DNA of 40,820 nucleotides. It comes from an uncultured Acetobacteraceae bacterium (GTDB lineage Bacteria > Pseudomonadota > Alphaproteobacteria > Acetobacterales > Acetobacteraceae). The DNA is taken from assembly GCA_937873095.1 (NCBI GenBank), contig CALMVI010000102.1, forward strand, positions 1-40,820, given 5' to 3'. The translations under genes and the position numbers were made by a program. The notes beneath the pieces are model-generated. The model saw nothing but the letters and a program-made list of their open reading frames with translations, was not told the origin of the DNA and did not search any database. Positions 27,135 through 34,127 of this stretch are shown piece by piece (within the stretch, counting starts at the first letter, position 1; each line of letters begins with the position of its first letter).

Positions 27135-27725
27135 ATGCTCACCCTGTCCCACTGCCAGGTCGCCGCCGCCGCACGCCGGTTCGAACAGGCCGGCCTCGCG
27201 GCTCTCGGCGCCGCCGCACTGGCCGCGGCCGTGCTGGTGTCGCCCGCACTGCCCAGGCTGAACGGCGCGTCCGTGCCGCCGGCCCGTACGGAGCGGGTGC
27301 TGACGCTGTCCGCCCCGGACGGCTCGCTGACCCGGCTGCGCGACGCGGCCGAGCAGGCGCGCGCCGAGCTGCTGGGCAGACCCGGCGTCGGCGCGGTGAC
27401 GCTGCGCGGCCTGGTCACGACGGGGCTCGAGGTGGAGTACGCGCCGGCGAGGCTGGCCCGGTCGGGCGTCACAGTCGGCGACCTGCGCGCAGCCGTGCCG
27501 GCGCAGTCCGTGGCGCCTGGGCGCATCGTGCTGTCGCTGGACGCCGCGCAGGGCGGCCCGCAGCCGGTCGCCGACCGCATCGTCCACGGCCGCGGCAAGG
27601 CGGTCCGGCTCGGCGACGTCGCGACAGTGGCGCGGGTGGCCATCGCGCCGGTATCGACGCTGAGCCGCAACGGGCATCCCGCGGTCGAGCTCGTCGTGCT
27701 GCCCGCGCCCGGCGTGTCCGACTGA
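27135..27725 (+). CDS. Free-standing fragment of an RND efflux pump porter domain
   Basis: The 196-residue product has an N-terminal hydrophobic segment (about 19-39). The rest resembles the periplasmic porter part of HAE-1 RND transporters: DAAEQARAELLGRPGVGAV (70-88), LEVEYAPARLARSGVTVGDLRAAV (98-121), GKAVRLGDVATVARV (154-168) and STLSRNGHPAVEL (174-186). Normal RND pumps have about 1030 residues with 12 helices; here the membrane core is missing. A strong RBS and an upstream TetR gene with an operator palindrome suggest regulated expression. It could be an internally deleted pump gene or a small anchored protein that modulates another pump. Neither can be decided from sequence. Confidence 0.72.
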   Translation: MLTLSHCQVAAAARRFEQAGLAALGAAALAAAVLVSPALPRLNGASVPPARTERVLTLSAPDGSLTRLRDAAEQARAELLGRPGVGAVTLRGLVTTGLEVEYAPARLARSGVTVGDLRAAVPAQSVAPGRIVLSLDAAQGGPQPVADRIVHGRGKAVRLGDVATVARVAIAPVSTLSRNGHPAVELVVLPAPGVSD

Positions 27726-27766
27726 CACGGACCCCCACGGCTTTCGCCGCCGGCGCATCGGTGGCT

Positions 27767-27870
27767 AGAGCACTTCCCGAGCCAACAGGCTCGGGAGTAG
27801 TGCTCTTCGCCATTGTTTCCTGGAGCATTACTCCCGACCGGGTGATTTCACCCGGTCGGGAAATGCTCTA
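27767..27870. repeat. 104-bp dual-hairpin element, copy 1
   Basis: Hairpin 1 is 27767-27806: outer arms AGAGCACT/AGTGCTCT and inner arms TCCCGAGCC/GGCTCGGGA. After 16 bases, hairpin 2 is 27823-27868: outer arms GAGCATT/AATGCTC and inner 14-bp arms beginning TCCCGACC. It ends in TA. The same layout and the same total length recur at 32599-32702 with different stems. The element ends immediately before the lactate permease start region, so it could act as a terminator for the RND-fragment gene, a leader structure for lctP, or a dispersed repeat. Confidence 0.8.
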
Positions 27871-27895
27871 AGTGGCGCAAAGCCTTGGGGGGGCC

Positions 27896-29503
27896 ATGTT
27901 CCATCAGCCGCTGACGCCAGTTGCGGGCAGCCTCGTGCTGTCCTTTCTGGCGGCGACCCTGCCCATCGCCACGGTGCTGGTGCTGCTGGGCGTGCTCAGG
28001 CGGCCGGCTTGGCAGGCCTCGCTGGCGGGCCTCTGCGTCGGGTTCGCCGTCGCCGTGTTCGGCTGGGGGTTTCCGCCGCTGCTGGCGCTGGACGCCGCGG
28101 CGGCGGGCGCGGTGTTCGCGCTATGGCCGGTCATGTGGATCGTGGTCAACGCGCTGCTGCTCTACAACATCGCCGTCATCTCGGGCCGGTTCGACGCCTT
28201 CCGCGACTGGATCCTCGCCCACCTGCCAGACGACCGGCGGGTGGTCCTGGTGGTCATCGGCTTCTGCTTCGGCTGCCTGCTGGAGGGCATCTCCGGCTTC
28301 GGCACACCGGTCGCGATCACCAGCGCGCTGCTGATCCTGGTGGGCTTTCCGCCGCTCGAGGCGCTGACCTTCACGCTGATCTTCAACACGGCACCGGTGG
28401 CGTTCGGCGCGCTGGGCGCGCCGGTGACGGTGCTGGGCCAGGTCACCGGCCTGTCGCCCGTCATCCTCGGCGCCATGATCGGGCGCCAGCTGCCGTTCAT
28501 GGCCCTGCTGCTGCCGTTCTACGTCATGGGCCTGTACGGTGGGGTCAGGAGCATACGCGCGCTGTGGCCGGTGCTGCTGGTGGCCGGCGCGAGCTTCGCC
28601 GCGGGCCAGTTCGTCAGCTCCAACTATCTCGACTACGCGCTGACCGACGTGTTCTCGTCGCTGACCGCGCTGGTCGTCACCCTGCTGTTCCTGCAGGTCT
28701 GGCGGCCCGCGCCGGATGCGGCCTTCGCGGTGCAGGCGAAATCGGCCGATGCGGCCCGGCCCGGCCGCGCCGTGCCCGGCTGGCAGGGATGGCTGCCCTG
28801 GGTGGTCGTGTCGGCCGTCGTGATCGTGTGGACGCATTACAAGGTGCCGGATACCGGCGCGTACCCCGTGCTGTGGCCCGGCCTGCACAACCGGGTCAGC
28901 ATAACGCTGTACCACGACAGGCTGTACGCCGCGAAATACGTGTTCCAGCCGCTCGCTTCAGGGACCGGCATCCTGGTCGCCGCGATCCTGACGGCGGCGC
29001 TGGTCGGCGTGGGTCCTGCCGGTTTCGTGCGCGCGGCGATCGTCACCTGGCGGCAGGCGCGCATCGCCATCCTGACCGTGGCGCTGATCGTGGCGCTGGC
29101 CTATCTGATGAACTATTCCGGCCTGAACTACACGCTCGGGCTCGCGGTCTCGCATGCCGGGCTGTTCTTCCCGCTGCTCTCGCCCTTCCTCGGCTGGGTC
29201 GCGGTGTTCCTCTCCGGCAGCGACACCTCCGGCAACGCGCTGTTCGGCAACCTGCAGGTGGTCGCGGCCAACCAGCTCGGGCTCAACCCTGTGCTGATTG
29301 CCGCAACCAACTCCTCGGGCGGTGTGATGGGCAAGATGATCTCGCCCCAGAACATCGCCACCGGCGTGTCGGTGACCGATCTCAAGGGCCAGGAGGGCAC
29401 GGTTTTCGCGCGCACCTTCAAGCACTCGGTGGTGCTGACGCTGGTGCTCGGCGGCCTGGTGCTGGCCCAGCAATACCTGGCGCCGTGGATGATCCCTAAA
29501 TGA
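27896..29503 (+). CDS. lctP: L-lactate permease
   Basis: The 535-residue polytopic protein of the LctP/LldP family imports lactate (and glycolate) with protons. Typical sequences are TPVAGSLVLSFLAATLPIAT at the N terminus, CLLEGISGFGTPVAI, FNTAPVAFGALGAPV, LNYTLGLAVSHAG, FLSGSDTSGNALFGNLQVVAA and ATNSSGGVMGKMISPQNIA. I chose the ATG at 27896, giving MFHQPLTPV as in relatives; a GTG at 27872 would add 8 residues and begins 2 bases after the dual-hairpin element. No lactate dehydrogenase lies beside it. It is convergent with the amino-acid permease, with only 4 bases between stops. Confidence 0.94.
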   Translation: MFHQPLTPVAGSLVLSFLAATLPIATVLVLLGVLRRPAWQASLAGLCVGFAVAVFGWGFPPLLALDAAAAGAVFALWPVMWIVVNALLLYNIAVISGRFDAFRDWILAHLPDDRRVVLVVIGFCFGCLLEGISGFGTPVAITSALLILVGFPPLEALTFTLIFNTAPVAFGALGAPVTVLGQVTGLSPVILGAMIGRQLPFMALLLPFYVMGLYGGVRSIRALWPVLLVAGASFAAGQFVSSNYLDYALTDVFSSLTALVVTLLFLQVWRPAPDAAFAVQAKSADAARPGRAVPGWQGWLPWVVVSAVVIVWTHYKVPDTGAYPVLWPGLHNRVSITLYHDRLYAAKYVFQPLASGTGILVAAILTAALVGVGPAGFVRAAIVTWRQARIAILTVALIVALAYLMNYSGLNYTLGLAVSHAGLFFPLLSPFLGWVAVFLSGSDTSGNALFGNLQVVAANQLGLNPVLIAATNSSGGVMGKMISPQNIATGVSVTDLKGQEGTVFARTFKHSVVLTLVLGGLVLAQQYLAPWMIPK

Positions 29504-29507
29504 CCCG

Positions 29508-30800
29508 CTATGGCCGGCCCCGCCTGACCAGGCGGGTAGCGGCGAACAGCGCGACGCTGGCCAGGATGACGGCGAACAGGCCCAGGACCTGGTCGCGCTG
29601 CGCCGAGCCGACCAGCAGCACCATCGTCGTCATGCCGAGCACCGACGCCACGGGCAGGACGCGGAAATCGGCCGGCGGACCCAGCGCCCGCGTGCCGCGC
29701 CGGTGCAGCACCCAGGCGGCGCCGCAGCCCAGGAAGTAAAGCCCGGCCGTGTTGAGGGTGGAGGCGGTGACGAGGCCGGTGAAGCTGCCAGACAGGGCCA
29801 GCCCGGCGGCGATCGCGCTGTGCACGCCGATGGCGACGTTGGGCGTGCCCGTCCTGGGGTTGGCGCGGCCGAGTGCTGCTGGCAGCAGGCCGTCGCGCGC
29901 GAAGGCGAACAGGATGCGCGGCGCGCCCAATATGTCGCTGGCGATGAAGCCGAGCATAGACAGCCCGGCCCCCGCCACCAGCACCAGGCCCGCGGCCAGG
30001 CTGACCCTGCCCGCGGCTTCGGCCAGCGGCGCCGTGGCCTGCGCGAGATCCGGCCCCAGCAGGCGCTGCGCCACCAGCTGGATGGCGATGTAGAGCACCA
30101 GCACGAACCCCATGGCGCCGAACAGGGCGCGCGGCACGGTGCGGTGCGCGTCGGCCACTTCGCCGCTGGCGCCGAGCACGGTTTCCATGCCGCTGAACGC
30201 GAACACCGCCAGGATCACCGCCTGGCCGAAGCCCGCGGCGGGCGGCGGCGCAACGGGCGGCGGTGCGGCAGGCGCCGCCCACAGCCAGAGCGAGACGAAC
30301 AGCAGCAGCGGCAGCAGCTTGACCGCGGTCACGACCGAGACCAGGCCGGCGCCGCCCCGCACGCCGCGCGCGTTGACCAGGGCGATGCCGCCAATCGCGG
30401 CCAGGATGACCATGGCCCGCCCGAGTCCGGCAGAGACGGCAGGCACCACGCTGCCGATGGTGGCGGCGAACGCGGCCGCGATGCCGCCGCAGGCGAGCAC
30501 GCTGGCGGTCCAGGTCATGATGCCGCACAGGAAGCCCGCCAGCGGCCCGAACGCGTCGGCCACGTAGCCATAGACGCCGCCGCTGGTCGGCATCCGGCTG
30601 CCGGCCTCGGCCAGGCACAGCACCACCATCGCCATCGCGGCCGCACACAGCAGGTAGGCCAGAGGCGCGCGCTGCCCCGCGGCATGGGCCATCGCCGCGG
30701 GCAGGCTGAATATGCCCGCCCCGACCACGCCGTTGACGATGGCTGCCCCCAGCGCCCACGGCCCGATATGCCGCCGCAGCCCGTCGTCGCGAGATGTCAT
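29508..30800 (-). CDS. APC superfamily amino-acid permease
   Basis: The 430-residue protein has about 12 membrane helices. The first shows the substrate-site signature AAIVNGVVGAGIFSLPAAMA (19-38), followed by SRMPTSGGVYGYVADAFGPLAGFLCG. FSGMETVLGASGEVADAHRTVPRAL is the conserved helix 6 region. It imports or exchanges an amino acid or polyamine; specificity cannot be read. The ATG at 30800 is used. A Pro/Ala loop (about 180-190) is unusually rich in proline. Confidence 0.9.
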   Translation of the reverse strand: MTSRDDGLRRHIGPWALGAAIVNGVVGAGIFSLPAAMAHAAGQRAPLAYLLCAAAMAMVVLCLAEAGSRMPTSGGVYGYVADAFGPLAGFLCGIMTWTASVLACGGIAAAFAATIGSVVPAVSAGLGRAMVILAAIGGIALVNARGVRGGAGLVSVVTAVKLLPLLLFVSLWLWAAPAAPPPVAPPPAAGFGQAVILAVFAFSGMETVLGASGEVADAHRTVPRALFGAMGFVLVLYIAIQLVAQRLLGPDLAQATAPLAEAAGRVSLAAGLVLVAGAGLSMLGFIASDILGAPRILFAFARDGLLPAALGRANPRTGTPNVAIGVHSAIAAGLALSGSFTGLVTASTLNTAGLYFLGCGAAWVLHRRGTRALGPPADFRVLPVASVLGMTTMVLLVGSAQRDQVLGLFAVILASVALFAATRLVRRGRP

Positions 30801-31050
30801 CGCCGCATTTCAACGGTGCGCCAGGCGCCGGGTCAAGGCGTGCGGCGCCCGTTCGTTCCGGTTTCCGCATCGCTTTGCCGGTGCCGCTCGGAGCGATGAA
30901 AAAAGTTTTGTGTCAGTGATGGAACCCGCATCGTTTGCCGTTGCACTGGGCGCTCGCATGACGTCTAGTTCACGCAACATCCTGCCCGGACGAGATGCAG
31001 GATCGGCTTCGACACATACGGCCCACGCATTCCCCGAATGGTGCTGAGCG

Positions 31051-32571
31051 ATGAGCAAGCTTGCGAACTCCGTCGATGCCGCCTCTGAAGAAGCCGCTGC
31101 ACCCGGCTCGCCGCCCCGGTCGCGCCCCGAATCGCGTGAGGAGTATCTCGACCGCCTGTCGGCGGTGCTGGGAGTCGACCGGACGCGGATGATCGCCTCG
31201 GCCTGGTCCGGCGACACGGTGCCCGCGTGGCTGCAGGAAACCCCTGCCGACGAGCCGGCCGCGCGGCCGGCCAGGCGCCGCCGCAACGGGCTGGCGGCGC
31301 TGCGGCAGACGACGATGCTGTGCGTGACGGCCGCGCTGGGATCCTGCCTGTTTCTCTACTGGGGCAAGAGCCAGGCGGCGATGGCCGACCGCGAGATCGG
31401 CCGCATTCTGCACGCCACGCAGGAGGCGCATGCGCGAGTCTATGCCCTGCGCGCGGAGTGGGCGCTGCTGAACCAGCCGGACCGCCTGCGGGACATGGCC
31501 GACCACCATCTGGCGCTGCGGCCGATCGCGCCCGAGCAGTTCGCCGAACCGGCCAGGTTCGCCGACCGCCTGCCGCTCCCCGCCACGGGGCCGGCAGTGG
31601 AGAGCCCGGACGAGGACACCGCCGTCGCCGCAGCCGAGCCGGCGCCGCCCACGGTCCGGAACGCGTCGGCCGTGGTTAAGGTGGCGAGCGCCCCCGAGGC
31701 CGCCTCGGCCGAGCAGGAGCACGCGCTGGCCGCCTCGGCCGAGCAGGAGCCCGCCCTGGCCGCATCGGCCGAGCGGGAGCCCGCCCTGGCCGCCTCGGCC
31801 GGGCGGGAGCCCGTCCTGGCAGCGGCGGGGCAGGAGCAAGCTGCGCAGGCGGCCGAACCGGCGGCGCCGACCGAGGCCGCCGCATCCGACGCGGTTCAGC
31901 CGCCGGCCAGGGTCGCGGCGGCGCGGGCGGACCAGGTCCCGGCCACGGACGAGGATGCCGACGACGCGCCGCTGCGCCACGTCCGCGTGCACGCCGCCAG
32001 GGCGGTGCCGACGCCGAGATACCTGACGCCCATGGTCGCCGAGGCGCGCCAGCCGATGCGCGTGCGCGACAGCGGAGAGGCGCTGCTGAACGGCGAGCCG
32101 GAGGCGATGCACCTGCATGCCGCCGCCACCCGCGTGTCGGCCACCGCCGCGCTGTCGCCGCTGGCGCGCGCCGAGGCGAGCCGGATGGCACGCCGCACGA
32201 TCGTGTCGAGGATCGACCTGCCGCACTGGCTGCTGCAGGCCCACCTCGTGCGCCCAGGCCGGTCGGAACCGCCGCACGCGCTCGGCGCCCCGCTGCCGCT
32301 GGCGGCCCCGCAGCCGCAGCCGGCCGCCGTGCAGCGCGTGGTCGCCCGGCCAGCCGCCGAGCCGGAGCATGCGCCGGTCCAGCAGGCGCAGGACCAGGCC
32401 TACGATCCGCCGCCCTACCGGCCGGCCTATCGCCCGGCCTACCCCTACGGCAATCCCTACCGCCCGTATTACGGCCAGGCCTATGGCGGCGGCTATTACG
32501 GCAACCCTTACGGCAACCCCTATTACCGCAGCTACGCGCCGCCGCCGCCGCCGAACGGCTATTATCAATAG
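31051..32571 (+). CDS. FtsL-like membrane protein with long low-complexity C terminus
   Basis: The 506-residue product has a cytoplasmic N terminus with a small helical unit (about 29-62). One membrane helix follows (about 87-104), then a coiled-coil segment and EWALLNQPDRLRDMADHHLALRPI, which closely resembles the periplasmic part of alphaproteobacterial FtsL. FtsL proteins are usually near 100-150 residues. Here the region continues with an Ala/Glu-rich stretch holding four 10-residue repeats (217-256), an Ala/Pro region and a Tyr/Pro/Gly-rich tail (451-506). The ATG at 31051 has no strong RBS. Division genes are absent nearby, so it is probably an FtsL paralogue or an envelope protein using the same fold. 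Confidence 0.75.
   Translation: MSKLANSVDAASEEAAAPGSPPRSRPESREEYLDRLSAVLGVDRTRMIASAWSGDTVPAWLQETPADEPAARPARRRRNGLAALRQTTMLCVTAALGSCLFLYWGKSQAAMADREIGRILHATQEAHARVYALRAEWALLNQPDRLRDMADHHLALRPIAPEQFAEPARFADRLPLPATGPAVESPDEDTAVAAAEPAPPTVRNASAVVKVASAPEAASAEQEHALAASAEQEPALAASAEREPALAASAGREPVLAAAGQEQAAQAAEPAAPTEAAASDAVQPPARVAAARADQVPATDEDADDAPLRHVRVHAARAVPTPRYLTPMVAEARQPMRVRDSGEALLNGEPEAMHLHAAATRVSATAALSPLARAEASRMARRTIVSRIDLPHWLLQAHLVRPGRSEPPHALGAPLPLAAPQPQPAAVQRVVARPAAEPEHAPVQQAQDQAYDPPPYRPAYRPAYPYGNPYRPYYGQAYGGGYYGNPYGNPYYRSYAPPPPPNGYYQ
31699..31818 (+). repeat. Four tandem 30-bp repeats within the FtsL-like gene
   Basis: Units at 31699, 31729, 31759 and 31789 encode AASAEQEHAL, AASAEQEPAL, AASAEREPAL and AASAGREPVL. 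The length is a multiple of three, so copy-number change would keep the frame. A degenerate fifth unit (AAAGQEQA) follows. Confidence 0.9.
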
Positions 32572-32598
32572 GCGATCCGGCGGCACCGACCGTGTGTC

Positions 32599-32702
32599 AG
32601 AGCGGATTCATGCTGACTGTGTCAGCCTGATCCGCTCTAAGCTTTTCTTTGGCGAGCAGCTTTATCAGCCAGACTGATTCCAGTCTGGCTGATGCTGCTC
32701 TA
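32599..32702. repeat. 104-bp dual-hairpin element, copy 2
   Basis: Hairpin A is 32599-32638: outer arms AGAGCGGA/TCCGCTCT and inner arms GCTGAC/GTCAGC. After 15 bases, hairpin B is 32654-32700: outer arms GAGCAGC/GCTGCTC and 13-bp inner arms ATCAGCCAGACTG/CAGTCTGGCTGAT. It ends in TA. It lies between the FtsL-like gene and the convergent channel gene. The final CTA of the element is the complement of the channel gene's TAG stop codon. It probably terminates transcription from both sides. Confidence 0.82.
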
Positions 32703-34127
32703 GTTGCGCATCCGCACGCCGAGGACGAAGCCGAACAGGCCGAGCAGGACGGTGCCCAGCACCGTCTGCACGCTGGACAGCAGCACGCCCAGCTGGCCTG
32801 ACGGCGTCAGCCCGACCTCCGACGTACCGACGGTCGTCATCGAGTCGAGGCTGAACAGAAGGTAGTCCACCGGCCGGAACGCCGAAGCCGGCGCCAGCCC
32901 GCCTGCGCCGCGCGGGTGCAGGCAGCCGGCGAGCCAGTAGACGACGGCGAACCCGAGCAGCACCGCCAGGAACGCCCGCAGCACCCGGCCCACGCTCTCC
33001 CCATAGTCGCAGAGCCATTCCGACAGGCAGTCGTTCAGCCAGCGCAGGCCGAAGCGCAGCGCCGCGCGGCGCTCGCCGGCTCCGAACGCCGCGGCGGCGC
33101 GCTGGCGATGCAGCTGCTTGTCCATCCTGCGGCGCCTGCGGAACGCCCAGCTGGCGTCCTGCGCGCTGCCCAGCGAGCGGAAGTTCTGCTCCAGCACGAT
33201 GTAGCTTTCCACCGCCGCCTCCCACTCGCCCGCGGCCTCCTCGCCCGTGGCGCCGCCCAGCTGGACGGCGCGCATGCGCGTGCGGTCCAGCCAGGCATTG
33301 GCGAAGCGGGCATGGCGCAGCGTGCAGGAGGTCAGCGGAACGTGCGGCAGCACGGCCTCGCTGAGGTCGGCGCCGGAGAGGTCAGCGCCGTCCAGCACCG
33401 CGTCACGCAGGTTGGCGCCGCGGAACCGCGCGCCCGCCAGCCTGGCGCGCCGGAGCGTGGCGCCGCCGAGATCGGCCCCTGCCAGGTCGGCGCCGCCCAG
33501 CTCCGCCTCGTCCAGGCGCGCGTGGCGGAAATCGGCGCGCTGCGCCTCGATCCGGCCGAGCTGCGCGCCCCACAGATCGGCGCCGGACAGGTCCGCCCCA
33601 TCCATCACCGCGCCGGTGAAGCGGGCAAAGCGCAGCCTGGCGCGGGCCAGCCTGGCATCCTCCAGCAATGCGGAGGAGAAATCGGCTTCCCCCGCATCGA
33701 CTTCGGTGAGGTCGGCGCCGATCAGGTCGGCTTCCCGCAAATTGGCCTGTTCGAGCCTGGCGCCGGCAAGGACGATGTTGCTGCCGCCCGCCCCGCTCAG
33801 ATCGGCGCCCGTCAGGTCCGCCCGGCTCAGCTGCGCCGCGCGCAGACTGGCGCCGGCGAGCGACCGGCCGGCCAGGCACAGGCCGCCTGCCGACGCGTCC
33901 CACCAGGGCGCCCCCCGGCCGCGCCCGCCCAGGGCGGCGGCCGACACGTCCGCGCGGTCGTAGCAGCGGCGGCTCTCGCCGCCCGGCGGGCAGGCCGCCA
34001 GGGCGATCAGCGCCTCGGTCGCGGCCGGATCGGCGTCCGGCAGGCGACCCCTGGATCTGGCCGGCACGGCGGATGGCGTGGCGGCCGCAGGCACTGCAGG
34101 GGGCAGGGCGTTCGGCGGTTCAGGCAC
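32700..34127 (-). CDS. Pentapeptide-repeat protein with C-terminal ion-channel (2TM) domain
   Basis: The 475-residue protein has an N-terminal Pro/Ala leader. A long run of pentapeptide repeats follows (about 88-290; A(D/N)LxxADLSGADL pattern), forming a right-handed beta-helix. Next comes a helical linker rich in basic residues (about 300-370) and a two-helix pore domain (about 380-475). The pore loop reads SLDSMTTVGTSEVG, with T432-V433-G434-T435-S436 where potassium channels have TVGYG, so selectivity may differ. The GTG at 34127 overlaps the end of the response regulator gene by 8 bases, which suggests coupling to the signalling cassette. The stop falls in the dual-hairpin element. Confidence 0.83.
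   Translation of the reverse strand: MPEPPNALPPAVPAAATPSAVPARSRGRLPDADPAATEALIALAACPPGGESRRCYDRADVSAAALGGRGRGAPWWDASAGGLCLAGRSLAGASLRAAQLSRADLTGADLSGAGGSNIVLAGARLEQANLREADLIGADLTEVDAGEADFSSALLEDARLARARLRFARFTGAVMDGADLSGADLWGAQLGRIEAQRADFRHARLDEAELGGADLAGADLGGATLRRARLAGARFRGANLRDAVLDGADLSGADLSEAVLPHVPLTSCTLRHARFANAWLDRTRMRAVQLGGATGEEAAGEWEAAVESYIVLEQNFRSLGSAQDASWAFRRRRRMDKQLHRQRAAAAFGAGERRAALRFGLRWLNDCLSEWLCDYGESVGRVLRAFLAVLLGFAVVYWLAGCLHPRGAGGLAPASAFRPVDYLLFSLDSMTTVGTSEVGLTPSGQLGVLLSSVQTVLGTVLLGLFGFVLGVRMRN

What the first reader, a model, noticed from the sequence alone, without database searches (positions are those of the whole stretch)
27767..27870. Dual-hairpin 104-bp element with a same-length, stem-divergent partner
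This element and the one at 32599-32702 both consist of a 40-nt hairpin with AGAGC/GCTCT outer arms, a 15-16-nt spacer, a 46-47-nt hairpin with GAGC/GCTC arms, and a terminal TA: exactly 104 bp each. The paired stems differ almost completely yet pair fully in each copy, as covariation would give. Within each copy the two inner stems share sequence (TCCCGA here, TCAGCC in copy 2), so the hairpins could exchange partners. This suggests a structured repeat family or a regulatory RNA rather than two chance terminators.
Basis: seen in the sequence. Interest (0 to 1): 0.72.

Follow-up and report, generated by a model that had tools for sequence, protein, structure and literature searches.

The report
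Two-hairpin mobile repeat ending genes
The element is one copy of a common family of tiny, probably mobile DNA repeats, each made of two hairpins and of a kind already known from other alpha-proteobacteria, and a good part of its copies supply the stop codon of the gene next to them.

Summary
Both 104-bp elements are two hairpins with a linker, folding far better than shuffled sequence. They belong to a dispersed family: a covariance model from 37 own-genome copies gives 150 matches (the scoring cap) in this 3.7-Mb genome and finds relatives in 22 of 24 own-family genomes of one sample (2 of 5 in another). Paired positions covary (30 of 35 pairs with two-sided changes). Size, anatomy, TA termini and a GANTC (CcrM site) in the second loop of 24 of 37 copies match the described CIR repeats of Caulobacter and Brucella; rhizobial copies share the layout. 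So: a new host lineage of a known kind, best read as a MITE-like mobile element rather than a regulatory RNA.

Added here, not seen for CIR in the texts I could read: YTAR flanks with evidence for TA duplication; subfamily-specific terminal inverted repeats, with stem sequence shared between both hairpins of one element; and the outer TAG often serving as a neighbour's stop codon (17 of 19 coding ends in that frame, window copy 2 included; also 5 of 6 rhizobial records that touch a gene). Stop donation is already reported for GTAG REPs (PMC3733652). No autonomous transposase was found. The host encodes CcrM; any methylation role is inference.

The parts
27766..27870 (+). Copy 1: complete two-hairpin element, TA to TA (subfamily C, core TCCCGA)
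   Evidence: model match E 1.3e-11 in own genome
27767..27806 (+). Copy 1 hairpin 1 (40 nt, AGAGC/GCTCT outer arms)
27807..27822 (+). Copy 1 linker, contains the family motif TTGTTT
27823..27868 (+). Copy 1 hairpin 2 (46 nt); loop GATTT at 27844-27848 where 24 of 37 own-genome copies have GATTC (a CcrM site)
32598..32702 (+). Copy 2: complete two-hairpin element (subfamily B, core TCAGCC); left T of the terminal TA is C here
   Evidence: model match E 2.4e-19
32599..32638 (+). Copy 2 hairpin 1 (40 nt)
32654..32700 (+). Copy 2 hairpin 2 (47 nt), with GATTC (GANTC) in its loop at 32676-32680
32700..32702 (-). Outer TAG of copy 2 = stop codon of the pentapeptide-repeat gene 32700-34127 (-)
   Evidence: coding frame test; pentapeptide domains; stop at the same place (TGA) in the same-genus relative G001
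27135..27725 (+). Gene upstream of copy 1: 196-aa fragment-like AcrB/D/F-family ORF
27896..29503 (+). Gene downstream of copy 1: L-lactate permease
31051..32571 (+). Gene convergent towards copy 2 (no Pfam match)

Best explanation
Both elements are copies of a short non-autonomous mobile repeat of the CIR type (CcrM-associated intergenic repeat of alpha-proteobacteria; rhizobial RIME and Brucella Bru-RS repeats look like the same broad family). The unit is TA-GAGC..hairpin 1..linker with TTGTTT..hairpin 2..GCTC-TA. SHOWN HERE: a dispersed high-copy family; covarying stems; absence from the relatives' junctions compared; YTAR flanks; subfamily-specific terminal inverted repeats; frequent coincidence of its outer TAG with a gene's stop codon. 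SUPPORTED BY ONE CASE PLUS TANDEM COPIES: insertion duplicates a TA. INFERRED: a transposase supplied in trans, now or in the past, recognises the ends and inserts at the TA of YTAR. In a GC-rich genome, stop codons are a sizeable share of the few tolerated YTAR sites. Because both ends read TAG going inward, insertion into a TAG or TAA stop in either orientation gives the gene a new stop and does little harm, while the mRNA gains a strong 3' hairpin. GANTC in the loop makes many copies potential CcrM methylation sites; its effect is unknown.
For: Copy number: 150 model matches in the genome, equal to the scoring cap; 37 copies aligned. Covariation: 22 of 35 pairs with two-sided changes within the genome and 30 of 35 across 32 elements from many genera, 82.8% of cells paired against 35-40% when slid. 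Distribution: 22 of 24 own-family genomes and 1 of 16 others in the relatives sample; 47 of 289 class genomes; all 23 positives of a 199-genome phylum sample lie in the same class. Target: Y before TA in 36 of 37 and R after TA in 36 of 37 copies (first counted on 32). TA duplication: at the L035 junction, removing the element and keeping exactly one TA restores a reading frame ending ...LMETHR*, colinear with ...MMETQR* in same-genus G002, while none or two TAs do not; two back-to-back copies share one TA (L068). Recent insertion: no copy in the relatives' stretches compared. Terminal inverted repeats: identity at positions 7-20 is 0.51 within and 0.40 between elements, 0 of 10,000 permutations. 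Stop codon: 17 of 19 coding ends in the frame where the terminal TAG is the stop, P 6e-7; the annotated stop equals the element's TAG in 5 of 6 fetched rhizobial records in which the repeat overlaps a CDS. CIR features per PMC2229807 section 7.
Against: No autonomous partner: own-genome IS5-group (PF13340), IS630 (PF13358) and Y1 transposase loci show no TAGAGC terminal repeats. Movement itself was not seen; no genome close enough for a base-exact empty site was available. The one-TA frame test rests on one locus and assumes no other indels there. An element that simply carries its own TA at one end would look alike without any duplication. 13 of 37 own copies, copy 1 among them, lack GANTC in the hairpin-2 loop, and 6 of 47 positive genomes show no RAMA-domain hit. 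In the class sample 3 of 5 own-family genomes have no match, and none of the Acetobacteraceae loci among 80 named ones has a copy. One shuffle control (further pair types) is not exceeded (212 of 500). Stop-codon placement may follow from where YTAR survives in GC-rich DNA: 6 of 35 YTAR sites in 60 kb lie at called stops, with a crude gene caller.
Confidence: 0.82

Rival explanations
1. Structured regulatory or sRNA family: the two hairpins act in RNA, with the shared inner stems allowing a switch between alternative folds.
For: Strong folding on both strands, covariation, possible partner exchange in subfamily C (-56.0 against -70.8 kcal/mol).
Against: Palindromic DNA covaries too, and these fold about equally well on both strands. 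No Rfam match. No sigma-70-like promoter in 27500-33000 (that scan does not cover other promoter types). No copy in the relatives' stretches compared. Exchange arms weaker in sum in all 8 elements computed. YTAR flanks and TA termini are not explained.
Confidence: 0.06
2. Two chance intrinsic terminators or 3'-end stabilisers specific to the neighbouring genes.
For: Copy 2 lies between two convergent genes and copy 1 follows a gene stop; the hairpins are strong.
Against: No terminator-like site with a T run at either copy. Same architecture at well over 100 genomic places.
Confidence: 0.02
3. REP/REPIN-type element: hairpins moved as single-stranded DNA by a RAYT (Y1) transposase, without target duplication; the terminal TA belongs to the element.
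For: One Y1-family transposase gene in the genome, RAYT-like by its REP flanks. Hairpin-built unit. Extra linker-hairpin units follow some copies (L067; overlapping or partial matches on C60, C75 and C115). A TA carried by the element would give the same boundaries. GTAG REPs too often donate a TAG stop (PMC3733652 passage).
Against: The Y1 gene is flanked by its own, different repeat, which contains GTAGGGCGGA/TCCGCCCTAC. Symmetric Y-TA / TA-R preference and terminal inverted repeats point to a double-strand cut-and-paste enzyme.
Confidence: 0.1

Closest known systems
[quoted passage not shown] Chen and Shapiro 2003, not held, seen only as described in PMC2229807)
   Same: About 110 bp, two long inverted repeats forming two arms joined by a linker, GANTC at the terminal loop of one stem-loop, TA at the termini, abundant in intergenic DNA of alpha-proteobacteria.
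   Different: Found here in Acetobacteraceae with at least four stem-sequence subfamilies in one genome. Terminal inverted repeats and TA duplication (listed as absent and unknown in PMC2229807) are supported here. 13 of 37 copies lack GANTC in the hairpin-2 loop.
RIME (Rhizobium-specific intergenic mosaic elements; Osteras 1995, title and citing passages only; paper not held)
   Same: [quoted passage not shown] A rhizobial-type consensus that I recalled hits 109 plasmid records, mostly Rhizobium, Bradyrhizobium and Sinorhizobium; copies printed have TAGAGC-type ends and a two-hairpin layout.
   Different: That these plasmid copies are what the paper calls RIME1 is recalled, not tested. GANTC sits in the other, shorter hairpin of that type (L291).
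Bru-RS1 / Bru-RS2 (Brucella; 103 and 106 bp, PMC10800456 passages)
   Same: Same size, related palindromic repeats. IS711 inserts at YTAR with TA duplication and favours Bru-RS (PMC3163539, PMC2266754 passages), the same target as found here for the repeats themselves.
   Different: Sequences were not fetched or compared here.
GTAG REPs (PMC3733652, passages)
   Same: Palindromic repeats close to gene ends whose termini often provide a TAG stop codon to flanking ORFs.
   Different: 20-40 bp single palindromes with a GTAG tag and RAYT transposases; here a 104-bp two-hairpin unit bounded by TAGAGC/GCTCTA.
RUP and other bacterial MITEs with TA duplication (PMC2229807, passages)
   Same: About 100 bp, TA termini, target TA, proposed trans-mobilisation.
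   Different: RUP's ends match IS630-Spn1; no such partner was found here. The two-arm structure differs from the single end-to-end stem.

Membership tests
CIR repeats | about 110 bp, two long inverted repeats as two arms with a linker | tested here: met
CIR repeats | GANTC at or in the terminal loop of one stem-loop | tested here: met
   24 of 37 own-genome copies, always at the same position; copy 2 yes, copy 1 GATTT; 11 of 32 in the multi-genus set
CIR repeats | 5'TA3' at the termini | tested here: met
   left TA in 32 of 37 (CA in 5, copy 2 among them), right TA in 34 of 37
CIR repeats | repeated in intergenic DNA of alpha-proteobacteria | tested here: met
   named copies in Asticcacaulis, Rhodoblastus and Rhizobium etli; intergenic position checked only for the 37 copies, by frame and GC
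CIR repeats | sequence similarity to the published CIR1-CIR4 | not tested
   the 2003 paper is not held and its sequences were not fetched; nearest named test is the Asticcacaulis excentricus copy (E 7.7e-7)
MITE (transposase-mobilised) | terminal inverted repeats | tested here: met
   (positions 7-20, within 0.51, between 0.40)
MITE (transposase-mobilised) | target-site duplication | tested here: inconclusive
   one locus by reading frame, back-to-back copies sharing TA, YTAR flanks; no base-exact empty site
MITE (transposase-mobilised) | an autonomous element with the same ends | tested here: not met
   IS5-group, IS630 and Y1 loci of the own genome only
GTAG/CGTC REPs (PMC3733652) | 20-40 bp single palindrome tagged by GTAG or CGTC at one end | tested here: not met
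   104-bp two-hairpin unit bounded by TAGAGC/GCTCTA; the genome's Y1 gene has its own GTAG-type repeat; that paper reports CGTC repeats as missing in Acetobacteraceae
Intrinsic terminator | GC-rich stem followed by a T run | tested here: not met
Known Rfam RNA | match at gathering score | tested here: not met

The most novel reading that the evidence does not exclude
CIR-type repeats are stop-codon-replacing transposons: a trans-acting enzyme inserts them at YTAR, which in GC-rich genomes often means the TAG or TAA of a gene, and their ends are built as TAG in both directions so that any insertion gives the gene a new stop, a strong 3' hairpin and, via the looped GANTC, a CcrM-methylatable mark. 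The four arms of one element co-evolve because they are copies of one enzyme-binding site.
Probability: 0.35. Interest if true: 0.57.

Novelty: new member of a known kind. Interest (0 to 1): 0.39.

Why it matters
The source I could read leaves open how CIR repeats move and marks their target duplication as unknown. The data here give a concrete target (YTAR), a testable TA duplication, terminal inverted repeats and a reason why such repeats crowd at gene ends: their own ends are stop codons, as already noted for the GTAG REPs. That makes the mobility question testable by looking for empty sites, and it warns annotators that many 3' gene ends in alpha-proteobacteria may lie inside a mobile repeat.

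Tried and rejected
Rfam scan of the window: nothing. Naive AGAGC...GCTCTA pattern: barely above its reversed control. Y1/RAYT as mobiliser: its locus carries a different, GTAG-type repeat. IS5-group copies (PF13340): no TAGAGC terminal repeats in the own genome; two plasmid IS5 relatives of that transposase gave GTGTCTGTCCG-like repeats in a loose scan. IS630 (PF13358): two related copies, ends unlike TAGAGC. Single-arm pattern search for larger elements: listed places were not followed one by one. Orthologous window region in named genomes: lactate permease found in 80 loci, but blastn showed nothing beyond it in the 14 printed, so no named empty site; R2 found 2 copies in those 80 loci, both in Rhodoblastus. 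Partner exchange between hairpins: in sum always weaker than the normal fold; an earlier constrained-fold attempt gave no usable result.

Rows dropped: of the window plus 40 own-genome stretches, copies cut by a contig end (L031) or running into N (L032), one spurious second match in L062, and four stretches without a clean two-hairpin match (L042, L043, L046, L047) were left out of A1. The joined-flank script used 32 of the 37 copies, one of them dropped for N; the flank bases were later recounted on all 37. 11 of those 31 junctions were sent as the empty-site query, with about 29 stray bases of neighbouring flanks pasted in by mistake. A3 comes from 31 sources rescored at E up to 1.5e-6. The 26-element tests keep one per genus or subfamily.

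Literature: 8 of 10 searches used, of which I saw listings, plus passages of PMC2573895, PMC3233446, PMC2873474, PMC2267715, PMC10800456, PMC3163539, PMC3733652, PMC2229807 (one section whole) and PMC2266754. I saw no description of this repeat in Acetobacteraceae. Chen and Shapiro 2003, Osteras 1995 and Halling and Bricker 1994 were not read.

Full report
WHAT IS THERE. The two window elements are as described: 40-nt hairpin, 15-16-nt linker, 46-47-nt hairpin, terminal TA, 104 bp. Both strands fold far better than shuffles. Copy 1 lies between an AcrB/D/F-like 196-aa ORF and the lactate permease gene; copy 2 lies between two convergent genes, the right one a pentapeptide-repeat protein.

A FAMILY, NOT A PAIR. 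In the own genome (3.69 Mb, 162 contigs) I fetched 40 stretches around pattern hits and aligned 37 complete copies including the two in the window. At least four stem-sequence groups occur, sorted by eye: A (GTTCAC core, with hairpin 1 paired mainly in its outer half), B (TCAGCC; window copy 2), C (TCCCGA; window copy 1) and D (GCTTCAGG). All share TAGAGC/GCTCTA-type ends, the order short hairpin, linker, long hairpin, and nearly constant length; most linkers hold TTGTTT. A covariance model gives 150 matches at E up to 0.1, which is the number scored, some overlapping in arrays. In a 40-genome relatives sample it finds 22 of 24 genomes of the same family, the own one included, and 1 of 16 others. 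A broader model from 32 elements finds 47 of 289 class genomes, own-family 2 of 5; all 23 positive genomes of a 199-genome phylum sample belong to the same class. That output does not say how many of the 199 lie outside the class.

COVARIATION. Within the genome, 22 of 35 pairs show two-sided changes and 82.5% of cells pair, against 30-36% when slid; the number of further pair types is not above shuffles. This is mostly between subfamilies, so events are few. Across genera, 30 of 35 pairs change on both sides with 82.8% paired against 35-40% slid, and all shuffle controls are exceeded. The A3 alignment was fitted to the model and leans towards it.

ENDS AND TARGET. The base before the left TA is a pyrimidine in 36 of 37 copies and the base after the right TA a purine in 36 of 37: YTAR. 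In 5 copies the left TA itself reads CA and in 3 the right one is changed. The outer arms are terminal inverted repeats whose inner positions match better within an element than between elements. Two copies back to back share one TA (L068). At the L035 junction (upstream ORF taken as DnaX, downstream as YbaB from recall; names not tested), the gene as it stands ends after 5 codons inside the element; removing the element and keeping one TA restores a C-terminus ending METHR*, like METQR* in same-genus G002, while zero or two TAs do not. The broad model finds no copy in the 20 relatives' stretches fetched. Both flanks matched in four comparisons (L060 in G001 and G002, L044 in G002, L035 in G002), mostly one flank in the others; on several sides similarity ends within 10 bases of the element's boundary, on others further out.

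STOP CODONS. I asked for each of 74 ends whether coding sequence, judged by third-position GC, runs into the element, and in which frame. 19 ends passed; 17 are in the frame where the terminal TAG is the stop codon (one of these, L044 right, has TAC by mutation), 1 each in the other frames (P 6e-7). That is 16 of 37 elements. Window copy 2 is one: its right TAG ends the pentapeptide gene, where G001 has TGA at the same place. Of 11 rhizobial or Caulobacter-family plasmid records with the repeat that I fetched, 3 carry no annotation there, 2 have no gene overlap and 6 overlap a gene; in 5 of these 6 the annotated stop is exactly the element's TAG (not). Most of the six were picked because the listing showed a gene, so 5 of 6 speaks only to the exactness of the overlap. 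YTAR is rare here: 35 sites in 60 kb, 6 at called stops, 8 in genes and 21 intergenic, element ends included, so target scarcity may explain much of the effect. Donation of TAG stops is already reported for GTAG REPs (PMC3733652 passage).

METHYLATION. The hairpin-2 loop carries GANTC in 24 of 37 own copies, always at the same position, and in 11 of 32 of the multi-genus set. The window has 23 GANTC sites against about 106 expected from base composition, a shortage that CcrM organisms are known for (recalled). The genome encodes a CcrM: L308, N6_N4_Mtase plus RAMA domains, E 3e-135 to the solved CcrMI 6pbd.

KNOWN FAMILY. PMC2229807 (section 7 read; other passages) describes CIR repeats with this anatomy, and its table gives no terminal inverted repeat and an unknown target duplication. 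Bru-RS1 and Bru-RS2 (PMC10800456 passages) and RIMEs (PMC2573895 passages) are of like size or kind. IS711 targets YTAR with TA duplication and favours Bru-RS (PMC3163539 and PMC2266754 passages). A recalled rhizobial consensus found 109 plasmid records; the Asticcacaulis excentricus (E 7.7e-7), Rhizobium etli, Sinorhizobium fredii (both E about 2e-4) and Rhodoblastus copies match the broad model, while two other Rhizobium copies and one Mesorhizobium copy score weakly (E 0.016-0.32).

HOW IT WORKS, MY VERDICT. A non-autonomous, two-hairpin, TA-inserting repeat of CIR type, probably moved in trans by an enzyme not found here. It is not a dedicated regulatory RNA. A side effect on 3' ends of mRNAs is plausible and untested.

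Noticed in passing
L068:259-467 (own genome C106): Two elements of different subfamilies (A and B) sit back to back and share a single TA.
   Followed up: yes
G000:C60:3770-4054, C75:16360-16613 and C115:64675-64905; L067 (own genome): Overlapping or partial model matches suggest arrays in which extra linker plus hairpin-2 units follow a complete element; seen in sequence only after the L067 copy.
   Followed up: partly
L156 (own genome C100:9149-9478): Single Y1-family (RAYT-like) transposase gene flanked by its own repeat with GTAGGGCGGA/TCCGCCCTAC and GCGGATGTCGCTGCGCTCTTCCGC.
   Followed up: partly
L272, L273, L275, L276, L279 (same-genus genomes G001 and G002): Where this genome has the two-hairpin element, the same-genus relatives often carry a different AT-rich hairpin repeat (AAAAGTTTTTTGCTTCTTTTTT...): 5 of 11 loci checked, but only 2 hits in 147 kb of own-genome sequence.
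   Followed up: partly
window 27135-27725: 196-aa ORF matches only positions 151-289 of the 1021-position AcrB/D/F model, so it looks like a leftover piece of an RND transporter.
   Followed up: no
L295:1501-1604 (Mesorhizobium pWSM1497) and L303:401-503 (Bradyrhizobium p186_1): Annotated genes end on both sides at or next to the element: the left stop is the element's TAG, and a minus-strand gene ends about 100 bp further on.
   Followed up: partly
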